Positions 37,146 to 46,039 of a stretch of DNA of 64,000 nt are shown piece by piece. The notes under the pieces are model-generated. The model did no database searches, was not told where the DNA came from, and was given only the letters and a program-made list of their open reading frames with translations. The stretch lies in NCBI GenBank assembly GCA_958296045.1, contig CATQHT010000001.1:124001-188000 (forward strand). Reading direction: 5' to 3'. The translations under genes and the position numbers were made by a program. The stretch comes from Rhodothermales bacterium. GTDB taxonomy: Bacteria; Bacteroidota; Rhodothermia; Rhodothermales; Bin80. Position 1 is the first letter of the stretch; each line of letters begins with the position of its first letter.

Positions 37146-39182
37146 ATGCCACGAAACATCGAATCCACGATTAACGGTGAGCTCGCCCGCCTACTCTGCC
37201 AAAGGCACCCGAAGTGGGACCTCAACAGGACACTGTTCTCGGAATGCACAGGAGTGATCGCCGATAACGCCGCGTTGCGCCCTGATCTACTGGTTCAGTC
37301 TCCAGGAGGTCAGCCGGTAGTTATCGAGACCGAGTTCAAAGCGGGGCCGCAGGTAGATAAGGAGGCCAAGTCCCGCCTTAATATGAGGTTATGGGATAGT
37401 CAGGAACGTATCGAGAGCGCCATTGCTGTGGGTATGCCCAGCGAGCTGAGGCACAATCCGCGCGCCCTGGAATCTGTCGACCTTACGTTTGCTACGCATC
37501 AGGTTGCTGAGGCAGATGAACTTATCAGGTGGCCCAAGAGGGACTGGCTTACAGGAAACGTCGACCGTCTTGCCGATGCGGTAGAGTACGTCTCACTCTC
37601 AGAGCGTCGCCTTGCTAAGGGGGCAAGCACGCTGGAAAAGACCGTCGCCAGCATTGCTGACTTGCTACGCCGCAATGCGCCAGACTACGCCCTAGAGGCC
37701 ATTGCTACGATCTTGCACCAAAAGGATGATGAACAGACTACACGCATGGCTGTGGCGATTCTGGCAAATGCGCTGGTGTTCCACTATACGCTGGAAGGCC
37801 AATCGGCCGTGCCATACGTAAATGAGCTTCGTAATGGGAGGTTTCTGTCGTCACGCATACTGGATGCCTGGGAGAAGATTCTGGCGATCAACTATTGGCC
37901 CATCTTCAGCATAGCGAGGAAGATCCTGCGTTGTATCCCGGCGCGATTCACCAGCCCGGTGTTCATGCCTTTGAATGAGGCAGCAGAATCCCTGGTTTCT
38001 CTGGGGTCCACAACCTTTCATGACCTCACCGGTCGCATGTTTCAGAAGATGATCATGGACCGCAAGTTCCTGGCAACATTCTATACGCTGCCCACATCTG
38101 CACAGCTGTTGGCTGACCTTGCCATTGACAGGCTGCACATTGACTGGTCTGACCGCGATGCGATTTGTGGTCTTCGAATCGCTGATTTTGCATGTGGAAC
38201 CGGAGCGTTGTTGTCCGCTGCACAAAGGATTATCTACCGGAGATTTCGACGTGCTGGAGGTAACGATGCGAAGATTCACCGAGACGTTGTAGAGAATACA
38301 CTCATCGGCTCTGACATCATGCCAGCGGCGACGCATATTACGGCTTCCATGATTTCCAGCCCACACCCTGGGGTCACCTATGCCACCTCGCAGATTCATA
38401 CGCTGCCTTATGGGCAGGACAAGTTGCGTGGGATATCAATAGGAGCGTTAGACCTCCTTGATGAAGACCGGACCTCCACGCTTTTCGGTCTTGGAACCCG
38501 ACGAATGGTAGGTATCGCGGGTGCTGAGAAGGTGCGAGATGACTTCGTGGTCGACGAGGAGTCCTGCGATATGGTCATAATGAACCCGCCATTCACCAGG
38601 CCCACGAATCACGCGATAGCGCATGTGCCGGTACCGTCATTCGCTGGCTTTGGCACCTCGAATGAAGAGCAGCAGGCGATGTCGGCGAGGCTCAACAGCA
38701 CCACGGGCACCCAGTTCGGCAGCGGCCACGCTGGACTCGCATCAAACTTCATGGACTTAGCGCACGTAAAGCTGAAGCCTGGGGGCGTCATGGCAATGGT
38801 GCTTCCATTCTCTTTTGCGACAGGAGCTTCGTGGAAGAAGGCCCGCCGCGCCTTGGACCAGCACTATCAGGAGATTCGAGTGATCGCCATTGCTGCTACG
38901 GGCCAGCAGGCCCGGGCCTTTTCTGCTGACACGGGGATGGCGGAATGCCTTTTGGTAGCCTCGAAGAAACGGATTCGTATTGCGCGCAACAAGAATCGGG
39001 AGGGGGGGGGGGGGTGGATCGGGCAGAAATACGGTCTGGCGCGGAATTTACGTCGCTACGAGCGCGTCCCGCATCGCTGCTGGAAGCAAACGCATGCGCC
39101 GACAAGATATGGAGCAGTCAGGCTTACAAAGACAGCATTCTCGATGCCGGTGGCGCTGGCGTGTTGGACGAAGCAATTCTGA
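37146..39182 (+). CDS. N6-adenine DNA methyltransferase with N-terminal PD-(D/E)xK nuclease motif (phase-off frame)
   Basis: A 678-aa frame starting at an ATG with GAGAG upstream. The N-terminal ~150 residues look like a restriction nuclease: LRPDLLV (P46-D47) and VVIETEFKAG (E63-x-K65). The middle is an N6-adenine methyltransferase: SAM-binding RIADFACGTGALL (347-353 DFACGTG) and catalytic MNPPFTRP (N480-P-P-F). LKPGGVMAMVLPFSF and ATGQQARAFSADTGMAECLL are typical of the following core. At residue ~618 it enters a run of 13 G and then about 55 residues that fit nothing, ending at 39182, while the expected C-terminal part continues in another frame. One extra G (or two fewer) gives about 944 aa. 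It would cut and methylate DNA as a single-chain (type IIG-like) enzyme. In the frame given here the target-recognition part is missing. Confidence 0.8.
   Translation: MPRNIESTINGELARLLCQRHPKWDLNRTLFSECTGVIADNAALRPDLLVQSPGGQPVVIETEFKAGPQVDKEAKSRLNMRLWDSQERIESAIAVGMPSELRHNPRALESVDLTFATHQVAEADELIRWPKRDWLTGNVDRLADAVEYVSLSERRLAKGASTLEKTVASIADLLRRNAPDYALEAIATILHQKDDEQTTRMAVAILANALVFHYTLEGQSAVPYVNELRNGRFLSSRILDAWEKILAINYWPIFSIARKILRCIPARFTSPVFMPLNEAAESLVSLGSTTFHDLTGRMFQKMIMDRKFLATFYTLPTSAQLLADLAIDRLHIDWSDRDAICGLRIADFACGTGALLSAAQRIIYRRFRRAGGNDAKIHRDVVENTLIGSDIMPAATHITASMISSPHPGVTYATSQIHTLPYGQDKLRGISIGALDLLDEDRTSTLFGLGTRRMVGIAGAEKVRDDFVVDEESCDMVIMNPPFTRPTNHAIAHVPVPSFAGFGTSNEEQQAMSARLNSTTGTQFGSGHAGLASNFMDLAHVKLKPGGVMAMVLPFSFATGASWKKARRALDQHYQEIRVIAIAATGQQARAFSADTGMAECLLVASKKRIRIARNKNREGGGGWIGQKYGLARNLRRYERVPHRCWKQTHAPTRYGAVRLTKTAFSMPVALACWTKQF
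39002..39014 (+). repeat. Poly-G tract (13 G), candidate phase-variation switch
   Basis: Thirteen consecutive G inside the methyltransferase gene, where the reading frame changes. It encodes a glycine linker between catalytic and specificity parts. With 13 G translation stops at 39182. With 14 or 11 G it runs on to 39979. Poly-G slippage is the standard switching mechanism of phase-variable restriction-modification and pglX-type genes. Confidence 0.85.
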
Positions 39183-39979
39183 CCGCTGTACGCGCGCTAC
39201 TTGGTGGAGAGCTGCTACTGCCGCGCGAAACCAGTGGCACTCCGCTGCCTGTGACCCTGTTGGGAGAGGTCGCGGACCGCGGAGTTGTTCATCGAGAGAT
39301 TTCCAATGCCCGCCAAGGTGCTTTTGACCTGCGCGGGCCCAACCGGGGAGAAGTACCGACGTATCCTATGCTTTGGAGCCACGATGCAAAGCGCGAGCGT
39401 CGCTTTGTGGTACACCCTGACCGGTGCGGTGATATCAAACCAGATCGCACGGCCCAAGCTGCCAAAATATGGGCTAAAGCCTCTCGGCTGCATAGCAATC
39501 TGGATTTTCGATTGAATTCGCAGAGTTTGGCAATGTGTTTGACGCCTGAGCCTTGTATCGGAGGACGCGCGTGGCCCAATGTGCTTCCAAAGAGCCGAGG
39601 CCATGACATCCCCATCCTACTCTGGTCTAACATGACGCTCGGGCTGATCATGTTCTGGTACAAGGGTACTCGCCAGCAACAGGGGCGCGCCAACCTTACC
39701 ATCTCCCGCTTGCTGGATTTACCAGTGCTCGATGTGCGCGCACTGTCTGAAGACCAGCAGGGCGAGTGCCAGCGCATCTTTCGCCAATTCAGCGAGTATG
39801 AATTCTTGCCTGCCAATGAGGCCTACCGGGATTCGGCCCGCAAAGATTTGGACAGTGCCATGCTGAGAATGCTTGGCGTGGATGATTCGCGCCTGCCGCA
39901 GCTCGAGCTTCTTCGCTGCAAGTGGTGCGCCGAGCCGAGTGTCCACGGAGGTAAGTCTACTAGGCCGTCAGGCATCTGA
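39014..39979 (+). CDS. C-terminal specificity part of the methyltransferase, in the shifted frame
   Basis: About 321 codons follow the G-run in the frame next to the methyltransferase's. The open frame formally starts at 38945, but the ATG there lies inside the methyltransferase coding sequence and has no ribosome-binding site, so this is the tail of the same gene, not a gene of its own. ASLLEANACADKIWSSQAYK, HDAKRERRFVVHPDRCGDIK, LHSNLDFRLNSQSLAMCL and LLWSNMTLGLIMFWYKGTRQ look like the target-recognition and closing helices of large single-chain methyltransferases (RANLTISRLLDLPVLDV is a common end). Base composition matches the upstream part. Its stop lies 91 bp before the next gene. Confidence 0.7.
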   Translation: MDRAEIRSGAEFTSLRARPASLLEANACADKIWSSQAYKDSILDAGGAGVLDEAILTAVRALLGGELLLPRETSGTPLPVTLLGEVADRGVVHREISNARQGAFDLRGPNRGEVPTYPMLWSHDAKRERRFVVHPDRCGDIKPDRTAQAAKIWAKASRLHSNLDFRLNSQSLAMCLTPEPCIGGRAWPNVLPKSRGHDIPILLWSNMTLGLIMFWYKGTRQQQGRANLTISRLLDLPVLDVRALSEDQQGECQRIFRQFSEYEFLPANEAYRDSARKDLDSAMLRMLGVDDSRLPQLELLRCKWCAEPSVHGGKSTRPSGI

Positions 39980-40069
39980 CCCGGAATCCACAAGACAACC
40001 AGGGAGGCGCACGGTCCACTGTATCCCATTAGATGTGGCCACTAGAAGAGCCTCTGACGAACAAGCGTT

Positions 40070-42472
40070 ATGGATACTCAGCACATAGATTTTCTGCAGC
40101 TTTTCAATTCGCAGGTACAATATGTGGTGCCGCGATGGCAGCGGAGGTATTGCTGGGGTGAGTCGGACATCAAACGGCTTGTCGAAGACCTGATCGCCGT
40201 TGCGCAATCGACGCGGAATGTTGCGCACTTTGGCGGAACGCTCATCACATTTCCCGAAAACAGAGCTCCAGGGCCGGTGCCGGTGTATCGCGTGGTCGAT
40301 GGTCAGCAGCGACTCACTACGATCAGCATCATCCTGGCTTGCATCGCAAAACGGCTCGGCACCGATGACAAATGCGGCGAGTGGACCGCAGAGATGATCA
40401 GGAATGATCGGCTTTTCAATCCAGGGAAACCACCAGAGAAACGCCGCAAGCTACGTTTGCAAGACGGCGACGAGGAGGAATACCGATCGGGCCTAGAGGA
40501 CGGCGAGGTGCGGGGTCCAGGCGCTGTATCACAAGCATGGAGGATCATTCGTCGATTAGTAAAACTGAACGACGTTGAGTTACTCTTCAAGGGGCTTGAG
40601 CGGTTTCGCGTGGTCAGCATTGGACTTAAGGGACACGATGATCCGCAGCAGATTTTCGAAACTTTGAACGCGACCGGGCGTCCTCTTACTGAGGGCGAGA
40701 AGCTGAAGAACTGGCTGTTGATGGCACTCGACGACGACGAGCAGCAGGAGGTTTACGATCTCTACTGGAAGCGCATTGAAAGATCGCTGGGTGCCAGAAA
40801 CTCGCCAGAACGCATCGACACGTTTTTGCGAGACGTATTGCGCTGGCAAACAGGAGAGATGCGCGGCGTTAAGTACGCCTATTCTGATCTGCGGAGATGG
40901 GCACTGAGAACCGAGAGGGATCGCGATCGCAAAGAACTATCCTCCTGGCTGGCAACGCTCGCTGTTCTGTACGGCACGATCACTGGAACTGGCACCGCTC
41001 ACAGAAGCAAGAGCGTCGAACGAGCGTTGGTGCATCTGCGGGCTATGCGAATGGATACCCACCGTCCTTTGACATTGCGACTGCTTCATGAGGCAGATGG
41101 TAGTGCTTGCGGGTGGACCAACGACGAGCTGGCTAAAGTGCTTAGCGGAGTCGGTACCTGGATGACGAGATTTTGGTTGTCTGACCGTCCTTCCGCTGGT
41201 CTTAACAAGGCATTTACGGAATTGGCTCACTGGAAGGGACCGGGGGCACCATGCGACCTTGTGAAAGAATGGTTTGGCCGAATCAGGAAATTCAGGAATA
41301 CCCGGGCCGGAGTTCCTGGTGATGAAGCTGTCCGTGAGGGTATCCGCGCTCGAAAGGCGTACGGCGGCAAAGCAACCGACGCTACCAAAGCCATTCTTTC
41401 CTACATGATGGAGGACGAGCAGGATGGTGACTCCCCAGCGCGTGAGGGCCTCACCATTGAGCATATCATGCCACGAAAATTGACCGAGGCGTGGAAAGAG
41501 GAGCTAGGACCGGATGCAGAACAGGTGCATAACGAGTATTGTAATCTGTTAGCCAACCTGACGCTTAGCGGCGTGAATGCGAAGCTGGGCGCAAAGTCAT
41601 TCGAGGACAAGAAGGTGATAATGAACCGCAGCGGTATCCTGTTGAACAGGGATATTGCTACCGAAAGTAGGTGGGATCAAGACGCGATGGATCGGCGCGC
41701 AAAGACATTGGCAGCTCGGGCGCTGAAGCTTTGGCCCTGGGACGACGGTGATTCAACTGCGGCCGCTTTCAGATGGCGGCTGGATGAAGGGCCCTGGCAC
41801 AGCGAAAGTAACGGCAGACAGATGGTGATAAATGTCGTCAGCGCCCTCCTCGATCGCGATCCATCCAACGCTGATCACCTGTTGGGCCCTAGGATTTCGG
41901 CTGATTTGCAGTGGGCGGGGGAATTGCCACTCGAAGGGGGGAAATTGCTCATTCCAAAACACAGGGACTACGTCATTAACACCAACTTCACGCAGGACAG
42001 GAACGCTGCTCGGGCGAAGGATATGGCCAAAAAGTGTGGGGTACGACTTGACGTAAGGAGGGCAGACTCTTTTGGTCTGTTTTGGGACCGTTTCCGCGAG
42101 CAGACAGGAGATCGGTATGGACCACCAGAAGGACACAGTCAGTCGTATATGTGGACAAAATACCCCAATAAATTCGGTGATAAGGTCGGCATCAGCCTTA
42201 CCGGCCCATCAATAAGGGTCTACCTCAAGGGGGCTCAGGGCACTAGAGACTCTCTGGACCGAATCAAGCGCATGGCATCCTTTTCTCGCAGCATCCAAGT
42301 CCACATGGCGGATCAGAGCTTTAGCGGGGAGATACAGACCGAAGCCAGCGAAGGGAGGAGTGTTTGTGTAGTCCGCAGCCCGTGGGATATCAATGAAACC
42401 GACGAGTGGACAGGCGATGTGCTCTGGATCAAGGATCAAATCGATCGGCTGACGCAGATCGCCAGCACGTAG
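40070..42472 (+). CDS. DUF262/DUF1524 nuclease, GmrSD/BrxU-like (type IV restriction)
   Basis: An 800-aa fusion. The N-terminal DUF262 (ParB/Srx-like NTPase) domain shows VVPRWQRRYCWGESDIKRLV, FGGTLITFPE and VYRVVDGQQRLTTISIIL; IFETLNATGRPLTEGEKLKN follows in standard order. The DUF1524 HNH nuclease is seen in LTIEHIMPRKLTEAW (E464-H465), then VHNEYCNLLANLTLSGVNAK and LGAKSFEDKK. Residues ~570-800 form an extra domain (SYMWTKYPNKFGDKVGISLT, RMASFSRSIQVHM) not recognised with confidence, possibly DUF4268-like. GmrSD enzymes cut DNA with modified bases using nucleotide hydrolysis. It lies 91 bp after the methyltransferase tail in the same direction. The TAG stop overlaps the target duplication of the following IS. 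Confidence 0.85.
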   Translation: MDTQHIDFLQLFNSQVQYVVPRWQRRYCWGESDIKRLVEDLIAVAQSTRNVAHFGGTLITFPENRAPGPVPVYRVVDGQQRLTTISIILACIAKRLGTDDKCGEWTAEMIRNDRLFNPGKPPEKRRKLRLQDGDEEEYRSGLEDGEVRGPGAVSQAWRIIRRLVKLNDVELLFKGLERFRVVSIGLKGHDDPQQIFETLNATGRPLTEGEKLKNWLLMALDDDEQQEVYDLYWKRIERSLGARNSPERIDTFLRDVLRWQTGEMRGVKYAYSDLRRWALRTERDRDRKELSSWLATLAVLYGTITGTGTAHRSKSVERALVHLRAMRMDTHRPLTLRLLHEADGSACGWTNDELAKVLSGVGTWMTRFWLSDRPSAGLNKAFTELAHWKGPGAPCDLVKEWFGRIRKFRNTRAGVPGDEAVREGIRARKAYGGKATDATKAILSYMMEDEQDGDSPAREGLTIEHIMPRKLTEAWKEELGPDAEQVHNEYCNLLANLTLSGVNAKLGAKSFEDKKVIMNRSGILLNRDIATESRWDQDAMDRRAKTLAARALKLWPWDDGDSTAAAFRWRLDEGPWHSESNGRQMVINVVSALLDRDPSNADHLLGPRISADLQWAGELPLEGGKLLIPKHRDYVINTNFTQDRNAARAKDMAKKCGVRLDVRRADSFGLFWDRFREQTGDRYGPPEGHSQSYMWTKYPNKFGDKVGISLTGPSIRVYLKGAQGTRDSLDRIKRMASFSRSIQVHMADQSFSGEIQTEASEGRSVCVVRSPWDINETDEWTGDVLWIKDQIDRLTQIAST
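42469..42472 (+). repeat. Target-site duplication GTAG, left copy
   Basis: GTAG at 42469-42472 matches GTAG at 46778-46781 on the far side of the IS1634-family element. The last three bases are the TAG stop of the GmrSD-like gene, so the insertion left that protein unchanged. Confidence 0.7.
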
Positions 42473-42514
42473 CCCAAGTTTGTCAATGTAGTGGATTTTT
42501 TACGTGAGGTAACA

Positions 42515-42535
42515 CATCCCTGACATACAGGGATG
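42515..42535. terminator. Hairpin inside IS left end
   Basis: CATCCCTG (42515-42522) and CAGGGATG (42528-42535) form an 8-bp stem with a 5-base loop, 30 bp beyond the transposase stop in the direction of transcription. On the minus strand no clear T-run follows until TAAAAAATCC (about 42492-42501) reads as A-run, so the terminator role is uncertain; it may serve to block incoming transcription. Confidence 0.4.
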
Positions 42536-42564
42536 GTCAGAAGGGCGGGTTTTACCCGTGTGTT

Positions 42565-43698
42565 TTACATGTTCACGTGCCCTTTAGCGGGGCGTCTTGC
42601 TTTCATTCTGCGGGTGTACGTGCCGGTTTTGAGCCCCATCGCGCGGAAGACTTTACGGTGGAACGGCTTGAGGTCCTGGTCTTTCTTGAGCAGGGTGCAA
42701 TGGGTTGCGTTTTGTGGGAGCACGGTTGTTACACGATGCATCTGGTTGAGCTTGACCTTGAGTGTGCCCCAGCTGCTGTGGATGTCGACGGTTCTCAATC
42801 GGCTGCGTATCAGATGCGCTGCGTGAAAGGCGAGAATGGACAGGAAGAGGTGGGCTTCTATGCGAAGGTCCCGACTGTGGTAGATCGGACGTAATCCGAG
42901 ATCGGATTTCATGGTGCGGAACGTGCGTTCGATCTCTCCTAGCTGCCAATAGGTCTGTGCGATTTTCTTGACCGACCATTCTGCGTGGCTGGTGCGCAGT
43001 ACATACCCGCCGAGGGCCTCCGTACATGCCTCGTAGGCAGGCCTCTGTGTGAGGCAGATCTTTTCGGCGTGGGTGCTGCCAGCCTTCCTGGTCACTTTAA
43101 CATCATACTGGTAGGCAACCTGCTTGTACTTTTCTATGAGTCGGCCCACCCGGATCTGCACCTTATCGAAGTTTTTCAGACGTCTGGGCAGCGCAAGTCC
43201 CGCGTTCAGGTGCGCGATGGCCTCCTCGAACTTCACACGCTTGGCTCCAACAATCTGGTCGCTGACTGCTTGTCGGGCTTCACTGTGCAGATACACGCGC
43301 CGTTCTCCTCCTTCGTCTGGGAGTGCCCAGGCACGCACGTCAACATCGCTGGCGGTTTTGAAGACTTGATCCGGTGCGTCTTTGGGTACCGGCGGGGACT
43401 TCGTACGCTGCACGCAGATCCAGTCCAGATTCTGTTCGTTCAAATACGCCAGATTGGCCTCTGTAGCGATGCCAGCGTCCATAATCACCGTGGGCTTGGC
43501 TCCGTTCAGCTGTGCAATGGCCTGGTGCAACGTGGCAGGCTCACTGGCATTGCCCGGGAGGATTTCCGCCGTGCGGGGGAACCCCGATGCATCAATCATC
43601 AAGGCCAACGTCACCAGTGGGCAATCAGACCGTTTTTCCTTGCTGCGACCATGCCGCAGCAAGTCCCCTTTCTTGCGGCCCGTGTAGAACACATTGGT
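42565..43698 (-). pseudogene. IS1634-family transposase, C-terminal part
   Basis: 377 codons continuing the transposase begun at 46567: after the duplicated ACC codon comes NVFYTGRKKGDLLRHGRSKE, then SDCPLVTLALMIDASGFPRT (catalytic region), EILPGNASEPATLHQAI, TVIMDAGIATEANLAYL, and the C-terminal DDE Glu region YWQLGEIERTFRTMKSDLGL with IEAHLFLSILAFHAAHLIRS. These are standard IS1634/IS4-like blocks. No start of its own is likely. The frame is intact, so precise loss of the insertion would restore the gene. Confidence 0.85.
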
Positions 43699-43705
43699 GA
43701 CAACA

Positions 43706-43718
43706 TGGAATCAAAAAG
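43706..43718 (+). repeat. Left inverted end of the serine-recombinase element
   Basis: TGGAATCAAAAAG, perfectly matched in inverse at 45871-45883. Probably a recombinase-binding arm of the attachment site. Confidence 0.8.
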
Positions 43719-43803
43719 ACTGCTGCGGCTGGATCGTGTTTTCGCCCGGCCCTAGTGATGGATCATTTGCATATGATCATATAGTTTTGGTATTATAGGA
43801 TGC

Positions 43804-44124
43804 ATGAAACGAGCCACACTGACGGAGCGCGCCGAGCGCGTGGCTGCAGCCAAGGTGCTGTGTCGGGAGCACAGCGCCGCAGAAGCGGCGCGCATGCTTG
43901 CCGCACGGTTCGATCTCTCCCGGGTGCAGGCTTCCCGTTACGTCCGTGCGGCGCGCGAAGCGGATTCTTCGCTGGCTCGGGCGGAGGCTACCGCGCCCCT
44001 GAGTGTCCGGATTCCCGTGGCTCTGCTTGCGCGTGCGCGGGCTCGTGCACGCCATACCGGTGTGAGTCTGGGGGCGCTGGTGGCTCGAGCGCTGGCGCGT
44101 CTTTTGGACAGCGATTCACCGTGA
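43804..44124 (+). CDS. HTH/ribbon-helix-helix regulator of the element
   Basis: A 106-aa basic protein with two DNA-binding looks: a helix-turn-helix (AEAARMLAARFDLSRVQASR) followed by a ribbon-helix-helix-type segment (LSVRIPVALLARARARARHT, GVSLGALVARALARLL). It is the first gene of the serine-recombinase element. Its stop touches the start of the next small frame (TGA ATG). A role in controlling or assisting the recombinase is inferred from position. Confidence 0.65.
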   Translation: MKRATLTERAERVAAAKVLCREHSAAEAARMLAARFDLSRVQASRYVRAAREADSSLARAEATAPLSVRIPVALLARARARARHTGVSLGALVARALARLLDSDSP

Positions 44125-44313
44125 ATGCGTCCCATCCGCCTGACATACAAACCGGACCGGGCTGCGCAGCAGCGCATAGCCCAGACCTACGAGCTGTTGG
44201 TGCAGCCCTGGATTTCGGACAACAATACATTCTCGCATGAAGCAAGAAGAGAAGATCGCGGCCGTGTACGTGCGCGTATCCAGCGAGAGCCAGCGGCGCC
44301 AGCAGACAATTAA
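44125..44313 (+). CDS. Small ORF overlapping the recombinase start
   Basis: A 62-aa frame beginning directly after the previous stop (TGAATG) and overlapping the recombinase gene by 77 bp. MRPIRLTYKPDRAAQQRIAQ, TYELLVQPWISDN looks like a real short helical protein. The last 25 residues lie in the overlap and may be incidental. Function unknown; small ORFs in this position are common in serine-recombinase elements. Confidence 0.4.
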   Translation: MRPIRLTYKPDRAAQQRIAQTYELLVQPWISDNNTFSHEARREDRGRVRARIQREPAAPADN

Positions 44314-46039
44314 CAGTCAACTGGAGGCCGTGCTGATGAATGCGCGTGAGCGTGGCTGGGCCATCGATAAGCAGCAGATCTTTGCTGACAACGGCTACAG
44401 TGGTGCCACCCTCGCTCGCCCCGGATTGGACGCCTTGCGCGACCTGGTCGCCCACGGCGTCCTGGCGTATGTGTTGGTCTTGTCTCCCGATCGGCTCAGT
44501 CGTAAGTTCGCCTATCAGGTTCTGCTTCAGGAAGAGTTTGAACGATACAACACCCGTATCGTCTTCGTAGAAGAGCCCGATAACGCGACGCCGCAGCAGG
44601 TACTGCTGCGCCAGATTCTGTCCGTCCTGTCAGAGTATGAGCGTACGCAGATTGCTGAGCGCTCTCGCCGCGGCAAACTCTATCGGGCCCGCCAGGGCTC
44701 TCTGAACATGATCAGCAAGCCCCCTTACGGTTATGACCTGATCCGTAAGACGGAGACCTCCGGCGCACGATTGGTGATCAATGCCTCCGAAGCGGCGGTC
44801 GTGCGTCTGATTTTCAAGCTTTATACCGAAAAGGGCGGCACCATTCCGGTAGTGGCACGGAAACTGGATGCACTGGGCCACAATCCCCGACACGCAAAGT
44901 ACTGGGGCATCTCCACCATTTCCAGCATCCTGCGCAATGAGGCTTACATTGGTAAGGCGGCGTATCAGAAGACGATGACATCGGAGAAACGGGTTCGGCA
45001 CAATCGCACCGGACGCAGCAAGAACGGCGCCGTGCGGAGATTGTATTCACGAACGGCTCGTCCACGAGAAGAGTGGATTACCTTGCGCGTGCCACCAATT
45101 GTTGACGAAGCAACCTTCCAACGTGCCAAAGAGCGGCGCAAACATAACCGTCGCTTTTCGGTGCGAAACACGCGTGCGCCAAGTCTTTTGCAGGGGCTAT
45201 GTATCTGCGCGCATTGCGGATATGCGATGGGACGGCTCCAACATAAGAACAGCCGCAGAAAATACTATCGGTGTAATGGGACGGAGGGCTGGCGGTTTCC
45301 CGAAGGCGCCGTATGCGACAACCCCTCCGTCAACGCCGAAGATCTCGACGTAAAGGTGTGGAAGGCGGTGGTGGGATTGCTGGAAGCTCCTGAACTCATT
45401 CAGGCCGAGATTGGTCGTCGAACCAAAGCGGCACGGAACAAGGGCCCGGCGCAACGGCGCAAGGACGAGTTGCAAAAGGAGCGTCTGAGCTGTGGAAGGC
45501 AAAGCCGCCGACTGGTGGATGCATACCAGCAAGGCCTTATAAATCTGGACGAGCTGCGCGATCGAACCGGACCGCTGCAAACGCGACAGCGGGCCATTGA
45601 ATCCGAGCTCAGGGCACTACAGGCCGATCGGATGGACGCCGCGTCTACCTTGACGCTCGCCCACAGTGTTCAGAAATTTGTGGCGCGGATGCACGAAGGC
45701 GAAAAGGACCTGTCCATCACGGAACGGCAGCAGTTGGTTCGGCTCTTGGTTCGCGAAGTACGCGTCGGCAAAACTGAAGTCACCGTATGCCATTGCATTC
45801 CGCTGGCACCCTCAGCAGACCCCAAGCAACGCTCCGACACGCCCCTGGCCTCACCGGCCAGCGAAAACGACTTTTTGATTCCACGTCGTGGTCAGGTCAA
45901 AGAAGGCAATGGTTTCGCTGAATCCCAAGAGCTCCTTCGTGGTGCCGAAGAGTGCATCCATGATCGACTGACGGTGCTCGTAGAGGGCATCTCCGATACG
46001 GTAAAGGCTGCTCAGACTGGGGAGGTCGCAGTGCAGTAA
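44237..46039 (+). CDS. Large serine recombinase with readthrough tail
   Basis: A 600-aa large serine recombinase. The N-terminal catalytic domain has AAVYVRVSSESQRRQQTINS with the nucleophilic Ser, YVLVLSPDRLSRKFAYQVLL, and SEYERTQIAERSRRGKLYRA. The recombinase domain follows (ISKPPYGYDLI, YWGISTISSILRNEAYIGKA). Then a zinc ribbon (CICAHCGYAMGRL with YYRCNG and VCDNPSVN) and a coiled coil. The family's usual end, EVTVCHCIPLAPS, is at residue ~525. Residues beyond ~551 are read from the antisense strand of the interrupted IS, because the frame has no stop before the element's end. It integrates and excises the element by site-specific recombination. Confidence 0.85.
   Translation: MKQEEKIAAVYVRVSSESQRRQQTINSQLEAVLMNARERGWAIDKQQIFADNGYSGATLARPGLDALRDLVAHGVLAYVLVLSPDRLSRKFAYQVLLQEEFERYNTRIVFVEEPDNATPQQVLLRQILSVLSEYERTQIAERSRRGKLYRARQGSLNMISKPPYGYDLIRKTETSGARLVINASEAAVVRLIFKLYTEKGGTIPVVARKLDALGHNPRHAKYWGISTISSILRNEAYIGKAAYQKTMTSEKRVRHNRTGRSKNGAVRRLYSRTARPREEWITLRVPPIVDEATFQRAKERRKHNRRFSVRNTRAPSLLQGLCICAHCGYAMGRLQHKNSRRKYYRCNGTEGWRFPEGAVCDNPSVNAEDLDVKVWKAVVGLLEAPELIQAEIGRRTKAARNKGPAQRRKDELQKERLSCGRQSRRLVDAYQQGLINLDELRDRTGPLQTRQRAIESELRALQADRMDAASTLTLAHSVQKFVARMHEGEKDLSITERQQLVRLLVREVRVGKTEVTVCHCIPLAPSADPKQRSDTPLASPASENDFLIPRRGQVKEGNGFAESQELLRGAEECIHDRLTVLVEGISDTVKAAQTGEVAVQ
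45871..45883 (-). repeat. Right inverted end of the serine-recombinase element
   Basis: CTTTTTGATTCCA, the exact inverse of the left end at 43706-43718. Followed by CGTCGT and the duplicated GGT (45890-45892). Confidence 0.8.

What the first reader, a model, noticed from the sequence alone, without database searches (positions are those of the whole stretch)
37146..39979. Restriction-methylation gene switched by a 13-G tract
Seen: a 678-aa frame with PD...E-x-K nuclease and DFACGTG/NPPF methyltransferase motifs breaks at exactly 13 G (39002-39014), and the expected C-terminal target-recognition part continues in the neighbouring frame for 321 codons. With 14 or 11 G the two join into about 944 aa. 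Known: poly-G slippage switches restriction-modification and pglX genes. Inference: some cells make a full enzyme, others a truncated one without specificity, giving mixed methylation and phage resistance in the population.
Basis: partly seen in the sequence, partly recalled or inferred. Interest (0 to 1): 0.9.

Follow-up and report, generated by a model that had tools for sequence, protein, structure and literature searches.

The report
DNA-guarding enzyme with slippery G-run switch
A bacterial DNA-cutting and DNA-marking defence enzyme is split in two by a run of 13 G letters that probably grows and shrinks as cells divide, turning the enzyme on and off; the device is known from gut pathogens, and here it recurs in other defence genes of one little-known, probably animal-associated bacterial family.

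Summary
Exactly 13 G (39002-39014) separate a 678-aa frame from a continuation in the -1 frame; 14 or 11 G would join them (944/943 aa). Relatives cover both halves as single proteins, usually 930-1040 aa, and the homology changes frame within 38969-39044, at the tract. The intact orthologue folds like type IIG restriction-modification enzymes (DrdV, BpuSI). The tract falls in a turn between two late methyltransferase strands, so the short product loses the last strand and the recognition part.

A poly-G switch is the best reading. Relatives in two other genera carry G runs at the same linker (9 G in frame; at least 15 G at a contig end). In the same genome, G runs split an Eco57I-type enzyme (12 G) and a type ISP enzyme (17 G). 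Across the bacterial family, type ISP genes carry 9-17 G at one fixed site, in all three frame states.

Corrections: the family's nuclease motif is D...E-x-E in 29 of 35; the window's K65 is not conserved. An own-genome paralogue with 11 G is interrupted by an IS110 element and is not independent support. The measured length, and so the OFF state, is uncertain without reads. Known kind: C. jejuni cj0031, H. pylori JHP1272.

The parts
37146..39001 (+). Upstream coding part in frame 0: REase-like nuclease, helical part and most of the N6-adenine methyltransferase (residues 1-618 of the 678-aa frame)
   Evidence: ORF; N-terminal match of relatives 37146-38996; fold of intact orthologue
37146..37601 (+). 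Nuclease domain, residues 1-152, catalytic set D47...E61-x-E63
   Evidence: Model pLDDT 94.9; best second-look match BpuSI nuclease domain Z 9.7, 127 aligned; D47 and E61 invariant in 35
38184..38204 (+). Methyltransferase motif I, DFACGTG
   Evidence: Translation; D, C, G, T, G invariant in 35 sequences
38583..38594 (+). Methyltransferase motif IV, NPPF
   Evidence: Translation; NPP invariant, F in 34 of 35
39002..39014 (+). Poly-G tract, 13 G in this assembly: the proposed switch
   Evidence: Sequence; only G/C run over 6 in the window; frame change of homology lies here; G runs at the same linker in L031 and L032
39015..39979 (+). C-terminal coding part in the -1 frame: last methyltransferase strand and target-recognition part, about 320 codons
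   Evidence: ORF 38945-39979; 58-64% identity to C-terminal part of closest relatives; fold match to DrdV, CamA and BrxX over this part
40070..42472 (+). GmrSD-type (DUF262/DUF1524) restriction gene, 91 bases downstream; neighbour, not part of a conserved pair
   Evidence: Pfam GmrSD_N and GmrSD_C; no match to it beside any relative of the gene

Best explanation
The locus encodes one type IIG-like restriction-modification enzyme of about 944 aa: nuclease, N6-adenine methyltransferase and target-recognition part in a single chain. The gene is a contingency locus. Replication slippage changes the number of G at 39002-39014; lengths of 11 or 14 (and every third one) give the full enzyme, while other lengths stop translation after the tract and give a protein without the last methyltransferase strand and the recognition part, presumably inactive. 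Cells of one clone would then differ in whether they methylate and restrict the enzyme's target site. Shown: tract, frames, intact relatives, fold, G runs at the same linker in other genera, and frame polymorphism at a poly-G site in a second R-M gene of the same bacterial family. Inferred: switching in living cells, enzyme activity, phage defence as the benefit.
For: Relatives are single ORFs over both halves; frame change at the tract; whole-chain fold match to DrdV, best Foldseek match BpuSI, nuclease domain like BpuSI. Same linker: 9 G in frame in L032/L003 (934-aa open frame), contig end in at least 15 G in L031/L002. Homopolymer splits elsewhere in distant relatives L045 and L068. Own genome: 12 G splits an Eco57I-type gene whose relative in G010 is one 1182-aa frame; 17 G splits a type ISP gene inside PF18135, profile 1-178 in one frame and 182-341 in the other. 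Type ISP genes of the family: nine copies with 9-17 G at one site, 3 in frame, 4 at +1, 2 at -1; eight copies with a longest run of 4 G or less all in frame, Fisher P 0.009. C. jejuni cj0031 is a tested precedent (PMC4889913).
Against: No reads, no second strain, no methylome: mixed lengths are not observed. The measured length may be wrong by one or two. Most relatives of this gene have no tract at the linker. MutS and MutL are intact in this genome, so slippage may be slower than in repair-poor species. The contig end in L031 could be inflated by a short-read poly-G artefact.
Confidence: 0.78

Rival explanations
1. The tract length is an assembly or sequencing error: the gene really has 11 or 14 G, is intact in all cells and does not switch.
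For: Long homopolymers are error-prone in all sequencing methods (general knowledge); L032 is intact with 9 G; no other lesion in the gene.
Against: An error in length does not remove the tract, and a coding run of 11-14 G would itself be prone to slip. Several independent assemblies show out-of-frame G runs at one site of the type ISP gene.
Confidence: 0.12
2. The gene is a plain pseudogene: one frameshift in a G run has inactivated it for good and it is decaying.
For: Out of frame as assembled; some relatives are broken without homopolymers, for example L056, L065 and L073.
Against: No second lesion in 2.8 kb; the C-terminal part after the break keeps 58-64% identity to relatives, as high as the N-terminal part, and keeps codon-position composition in its own frame.
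Confidence: 0.07
3. The ribosome or RNA polymerase slips on the G run, so that a fixed 13-G gene always yields both a short and a full product (programmed recoding).
For: The shift needed here, and in the 12-G Eco57I-type gene, is -1, the usual direction of ribosomal slippage.
Against: Among type ISP genes with tracts, offsets 0, +1 and -1 all occur and lengths vary from 9 to 17; programmed recoding predicts one offset.
Confidence: 0.04
4. The G run is a mark of an IS110-type element that in this genome sits next to G runs: the tract is its target or a scar, not a selected switch.
For: An IS110 element (443-aa transposase) has 17 left ends in this genome with 1-15 G in front of them, and one copy sits at the linker of the own-genome paralogue.
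Against: Neither IS end is near the window tract: the C-terminal coding sequence follows directly. Tracts in L031, L032 and the type ISP genes are likewise followed by coding sequence.
Confidence: 0.04

Closest known systems
Campylobacter jejuni cj0031/cj0032 type IIG enzyme (PMC4889913; PMC6321876)
   Same: Single-chain type IIG enzyme; poly-G in the coding region, two thirds along, separates it into two frames; only a subset of homologues carries the tract (12 strains phase variable although nearly all have the gene).
   Different: There phase variation and partial methylation were measured; here only sequence. Lineage differs, and the present family has no Pfam model of its own.
Helicobacter pylori JHP1272 / HP1353-HP1354 type IIG enzymes (PMC3936762)
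   Same: Homopolymer runs in a type IIG gene switch it on and off.
   Different: Runs of C, and a second run near the recognition region changes specificity; no second run here (longest other run in the gene is 5).
DrdV and BpuSI (type IIG, solved structures 7lo5/7lvv and 3s1s)
   Same: Same order of nuclease, helical part, methyltransferase and recognition part; whole-chain fold match.
   Different: Only 12-15% identical; no phase variation known to me.
PglX/BrxX of BREX
   Same: Methyltransferase and recognition-part fold (Z about 21-23); weak profile hit at motif I.
   Different: Nuclease domain present here; no BREX genes among the neighbours scanned.

Membership tests
Type IIG restriction-modification enzyme | REase-fold (PD-(D/E)xK type) nuclease domain in the same chain | tested here: met
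   Window N-domain model matches BpuSI nuclease domain Z 9.7 over 127 residues and DrdV Z 7.1; D47 and E61 invariant, E63 in 29 of 35 and K in 6. Foldseek alone gave no significant hit.
Type IIG restriction-modification enzyme | N6-adenine methyltransferase with motifs I and IV | tested here: met
   DFACGTG and NPPF almost invariant; fold match to CamA, M.TaqI and DrdV.
Type IIG restriction-modification enzyme | C-terminal target-recognition part in the same chain | tested here: met
   Intact relatives carry both halves in one ORF; fold match to DrdV, CamA and BrxX through residue 894. In the window itself the part is in another frame.
Type IIG restriction-modification enzyme | Cleaves and methylates DNA at a specific site | not testable with these tools
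   Needs expression and methylome or cleavage assay.
Phase-variable (contingency) locus with homopolymer | Homopolymer in the coding region whose length decides the frame of the rest | tested here: met
Phase-variable (contingency) locus with homopolymer | Length polymorphism of the tract between copies or relatives | tested here: met
   13 G here, 9 G in L032, at least 15 G in L031 at the same linker; these are different genera, not strains.
Phase-variable (contingency) locus with homopolymer | Reversible switching within a clonal population | not testable with these tools
   No reads or isolates available.
BREX (PglX) | Partner genes such as PglZ and BrxC beside the methyltransferase | tested here: not met
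   Neighbours scanned are a TonB receptor, GmrSD, an IS1634 transposase, a serine recombinase and TatD.

The most novel reading that the evidence does not exclude
A whole bacterial family, probably of animal (sponge) symbionts, uses poly-G slippage as a shared control layer: several type IIG and type ISP restriction systems per genome, together with Ig-like/LRR surface proteins, flip independently, so that each host carries a mosaic of methylomes and cell surfaces.
Probability: 0.45. Interest if true: 0.75.

Novelty: new member of a known kind. Interest (0 to 1): 0.55.

Why it matters
Phase-variable R-M genes are mostly described in host-adapted pathogens. The same device at recurrent sites in several R-M genes of an uncultured, probably animal-associated family suggests that mixed methylation and mixed phage resistance may also be built into long-term symbiont populations, and it names fixed sites where existing metagenome reads can test this directly.

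Tried and rejected
Own-genome paralogue with 11 G (L023/L097): first taken as independent support, then found to be interrupted there by a 2.46-kb IS110 element whose left ends abut G runs of 1-15; not counted. Conserved operon with GmrSD: rejected, not found beside any relative. Members on viral contigs and plasmids exist but are distant and add nothing on the tract. Pfam gives no family for the protein, NCBIfam and PHROGs only weak hits. Foldseek on the nuclease domain alone had no significant match; the second look did. The excess of G/C runs of 10 or more in the genome is only moderate (23 seen, 12.7 expected); it is clear at 12 or more. Enrichment of runs of 9 or more in homologue genes over their flanks is weak, P 0.03. 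The tally of five R-M genes among 17 tracts rests on an assumed R-M share of 1.4-3% of the genome, so its P value is rough. No paper on phase-variable R-M in sponge symbionts was found in the held library.

Full report
Observation. The tract is exactly 13 G at 39002-39014. A frame from ATG 37146 runs to a stop at 39182; the continuation to 39979 is in the -1 frame. Fourteen or eleven G give 944 or 943 aa. The window has no other G/C run over 6 bases; 20,000 codon shuffles of the gene reached at most 12; a first-order model expects 0.24 runs of 13 or more in this 4.78-Mb genome and six are present.

One gene, not two. In the window's bacterial family (16 genomes held) and in 53 further loci from other genomes and viral contigs, most relatives read through both halves as one protein, usually 930-1040 aa. 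The closest share 60-64% identity in the N-terminal part and 58-64% in the C-terminal part. tblastn with six intact relatives places the frame change between 38969 and 39044 for most of them, overlapping at the tract for the rest. No other lesion is present.

What the protein is. Pfam has no family for it. The intact orthologue L032, modelled with 35 sequences (pLDDT 86.7), matches the type IIG enzyme DrdV over the whole chain (Z 21-22) and has BpuSI as best Foldseek match; CamA, M.TaqI and BrxX match the methyltransferase and recognition parts. The nuclease domain of the window protein alone (pLDDT 94.9) matches the BpuSI nuclease domain (Z 9.7) and other restriction-endonuclease folds. The catalytic set is D47...E61-x-E63, with K at 63 in 6 of 35; K65 of the window is not conserved. 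In the model the tract position (residues 611-613) is the turn between strands 602-609 and 615-620, so truncation removes the last strand and the recognition part.

Why switching. (a) Same linker: 9 G in frame in L032 and a contig ending in at least 15 G in L031, which also has an in-frame 12-G run upstream; a short-read poly-G artefact cannot be excluded for that contig end. (b) Distant relatives in Rhodobacteraceae (L045, G9 near residue 28) and Acidimicrobiia (L068, C11 in the C-terminal part) are split by homopolymers at other sites. (c) Own genome: of 23 runs of 10 or more, six abut an IS110 element; of the other 17, five lie in R-M genes (the window gene; 12 G between motif X and motif I of an Eco57I-type enzyme; 17 G within PF18135 of a type ISP enzyme; in-frame C10 and C11 in two more) and four lie near the start of Ig-like/LRR surface proteins. 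(d) Type ISP genes of the family carry poly-G at one fixed site in nine copies with both halves readable: 9, 9, 10, 11, 11, 11, 11, 14 and 17 G; three in frame, four at +1, two at -1. Eight copies with a longest run of 4 G or less are all in frame (Fisher P 0.009); two copies with 6 G are one in frame and one out. All three frame states argue for DNA slippage and against programmed recoding.

Limits. No reads, no second strain, no methylome. Long homopolymers are error-prone, so the OFF state of this assembly is uncertain; the tract is not. MutS and MutL are present. The paralogue L097 is IS110-interrupted at the linker and not used as support.

Known kinds. C. jejuni cj0031 (poly-G splits a type IIG gene; PMC4889913; phase variable in only 12 strains, PMC6321876) and H. 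pylori JHP1272 (PMC3936762) are the same kind of device. The window gene is a new member in another lineage and an enzyme family without a Pfam model. Record titles of relatives are MAGs of Rhodothermales/Bacteroidota, Acidimicrobiia and others, two of them named Candidatus Poriferisocius; that many isolate codes stand for sponge hosts is my own knowledge and was not checked.

Noticed in passing
L085:3539-3549, L086:3509-3521, L088:3574-3583, L101:3527-3537 (own genome): Four very similar starts of large Ig-like (He_PIG)/LRR surface proteins carry 10-13 G between MVSSKAM...RRLEN and a signal-peptide-like stretch; in all four the upstream ATG frame is out of frame with the main ORF.
   Followed up: partly
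L105:3491-3507 (own genome C3:2784090-2784106) and L156-L176: 17 G splits a type ISP restriction gene; the same site carries 9-14 G in copies from several other genomes of the family, in all three frame states.
   Followed up: yes
L090:3513-3524 (own genome C2:164512): 12 G splits an Eco57I-type R-M gene between methyltransferase motif X and motif I; the relative in G010 is one 1182-aa frame.
   Followed up: yes
L099:3526-3535 and L095:3543-3553 (own genome): Runs of 10 and 11 C lie in frame inside two further Eco57I-type enzymes (1182 and 1437 aa).
   Followed up: partly
L097:2564-5037 and L112-L128 (own genome): A 2.46-kb IS110 element (443-aa transposase) has 17 left ends with 1-15 G in front; tandem copies in L100 join by G7. 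It may target G runs, or its end run may slip.
   Followed up: partly
L087:3523-3532 and L103:3501-3510 (own genome): Runs of 10 G are followed by a nearly identical repeat (taaa.ctgttacg..cagcataaggcttcagctgtga), in L103 close to an outer-membrane-protein-like frame.
   Followed up: no
L042:167-15393: Tandem array of at least four homologues of the gene on one contig, the last cut by the contig end.
   Followed up: no
L045:333-341 and L068:11108-11118: Distant homologues in Rhodobacteraceae and Acidimicrobiia are split by G9 and C11 at other places in the gene.
   Followed up: partly
window 37146-46039: The gene, a GmrSD-type restriction gene, an IS1634 transposase and a large serine recombinase sit between a TonB receptor and TatD, which looks like a small acquired defence island.
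   Followed up: partly
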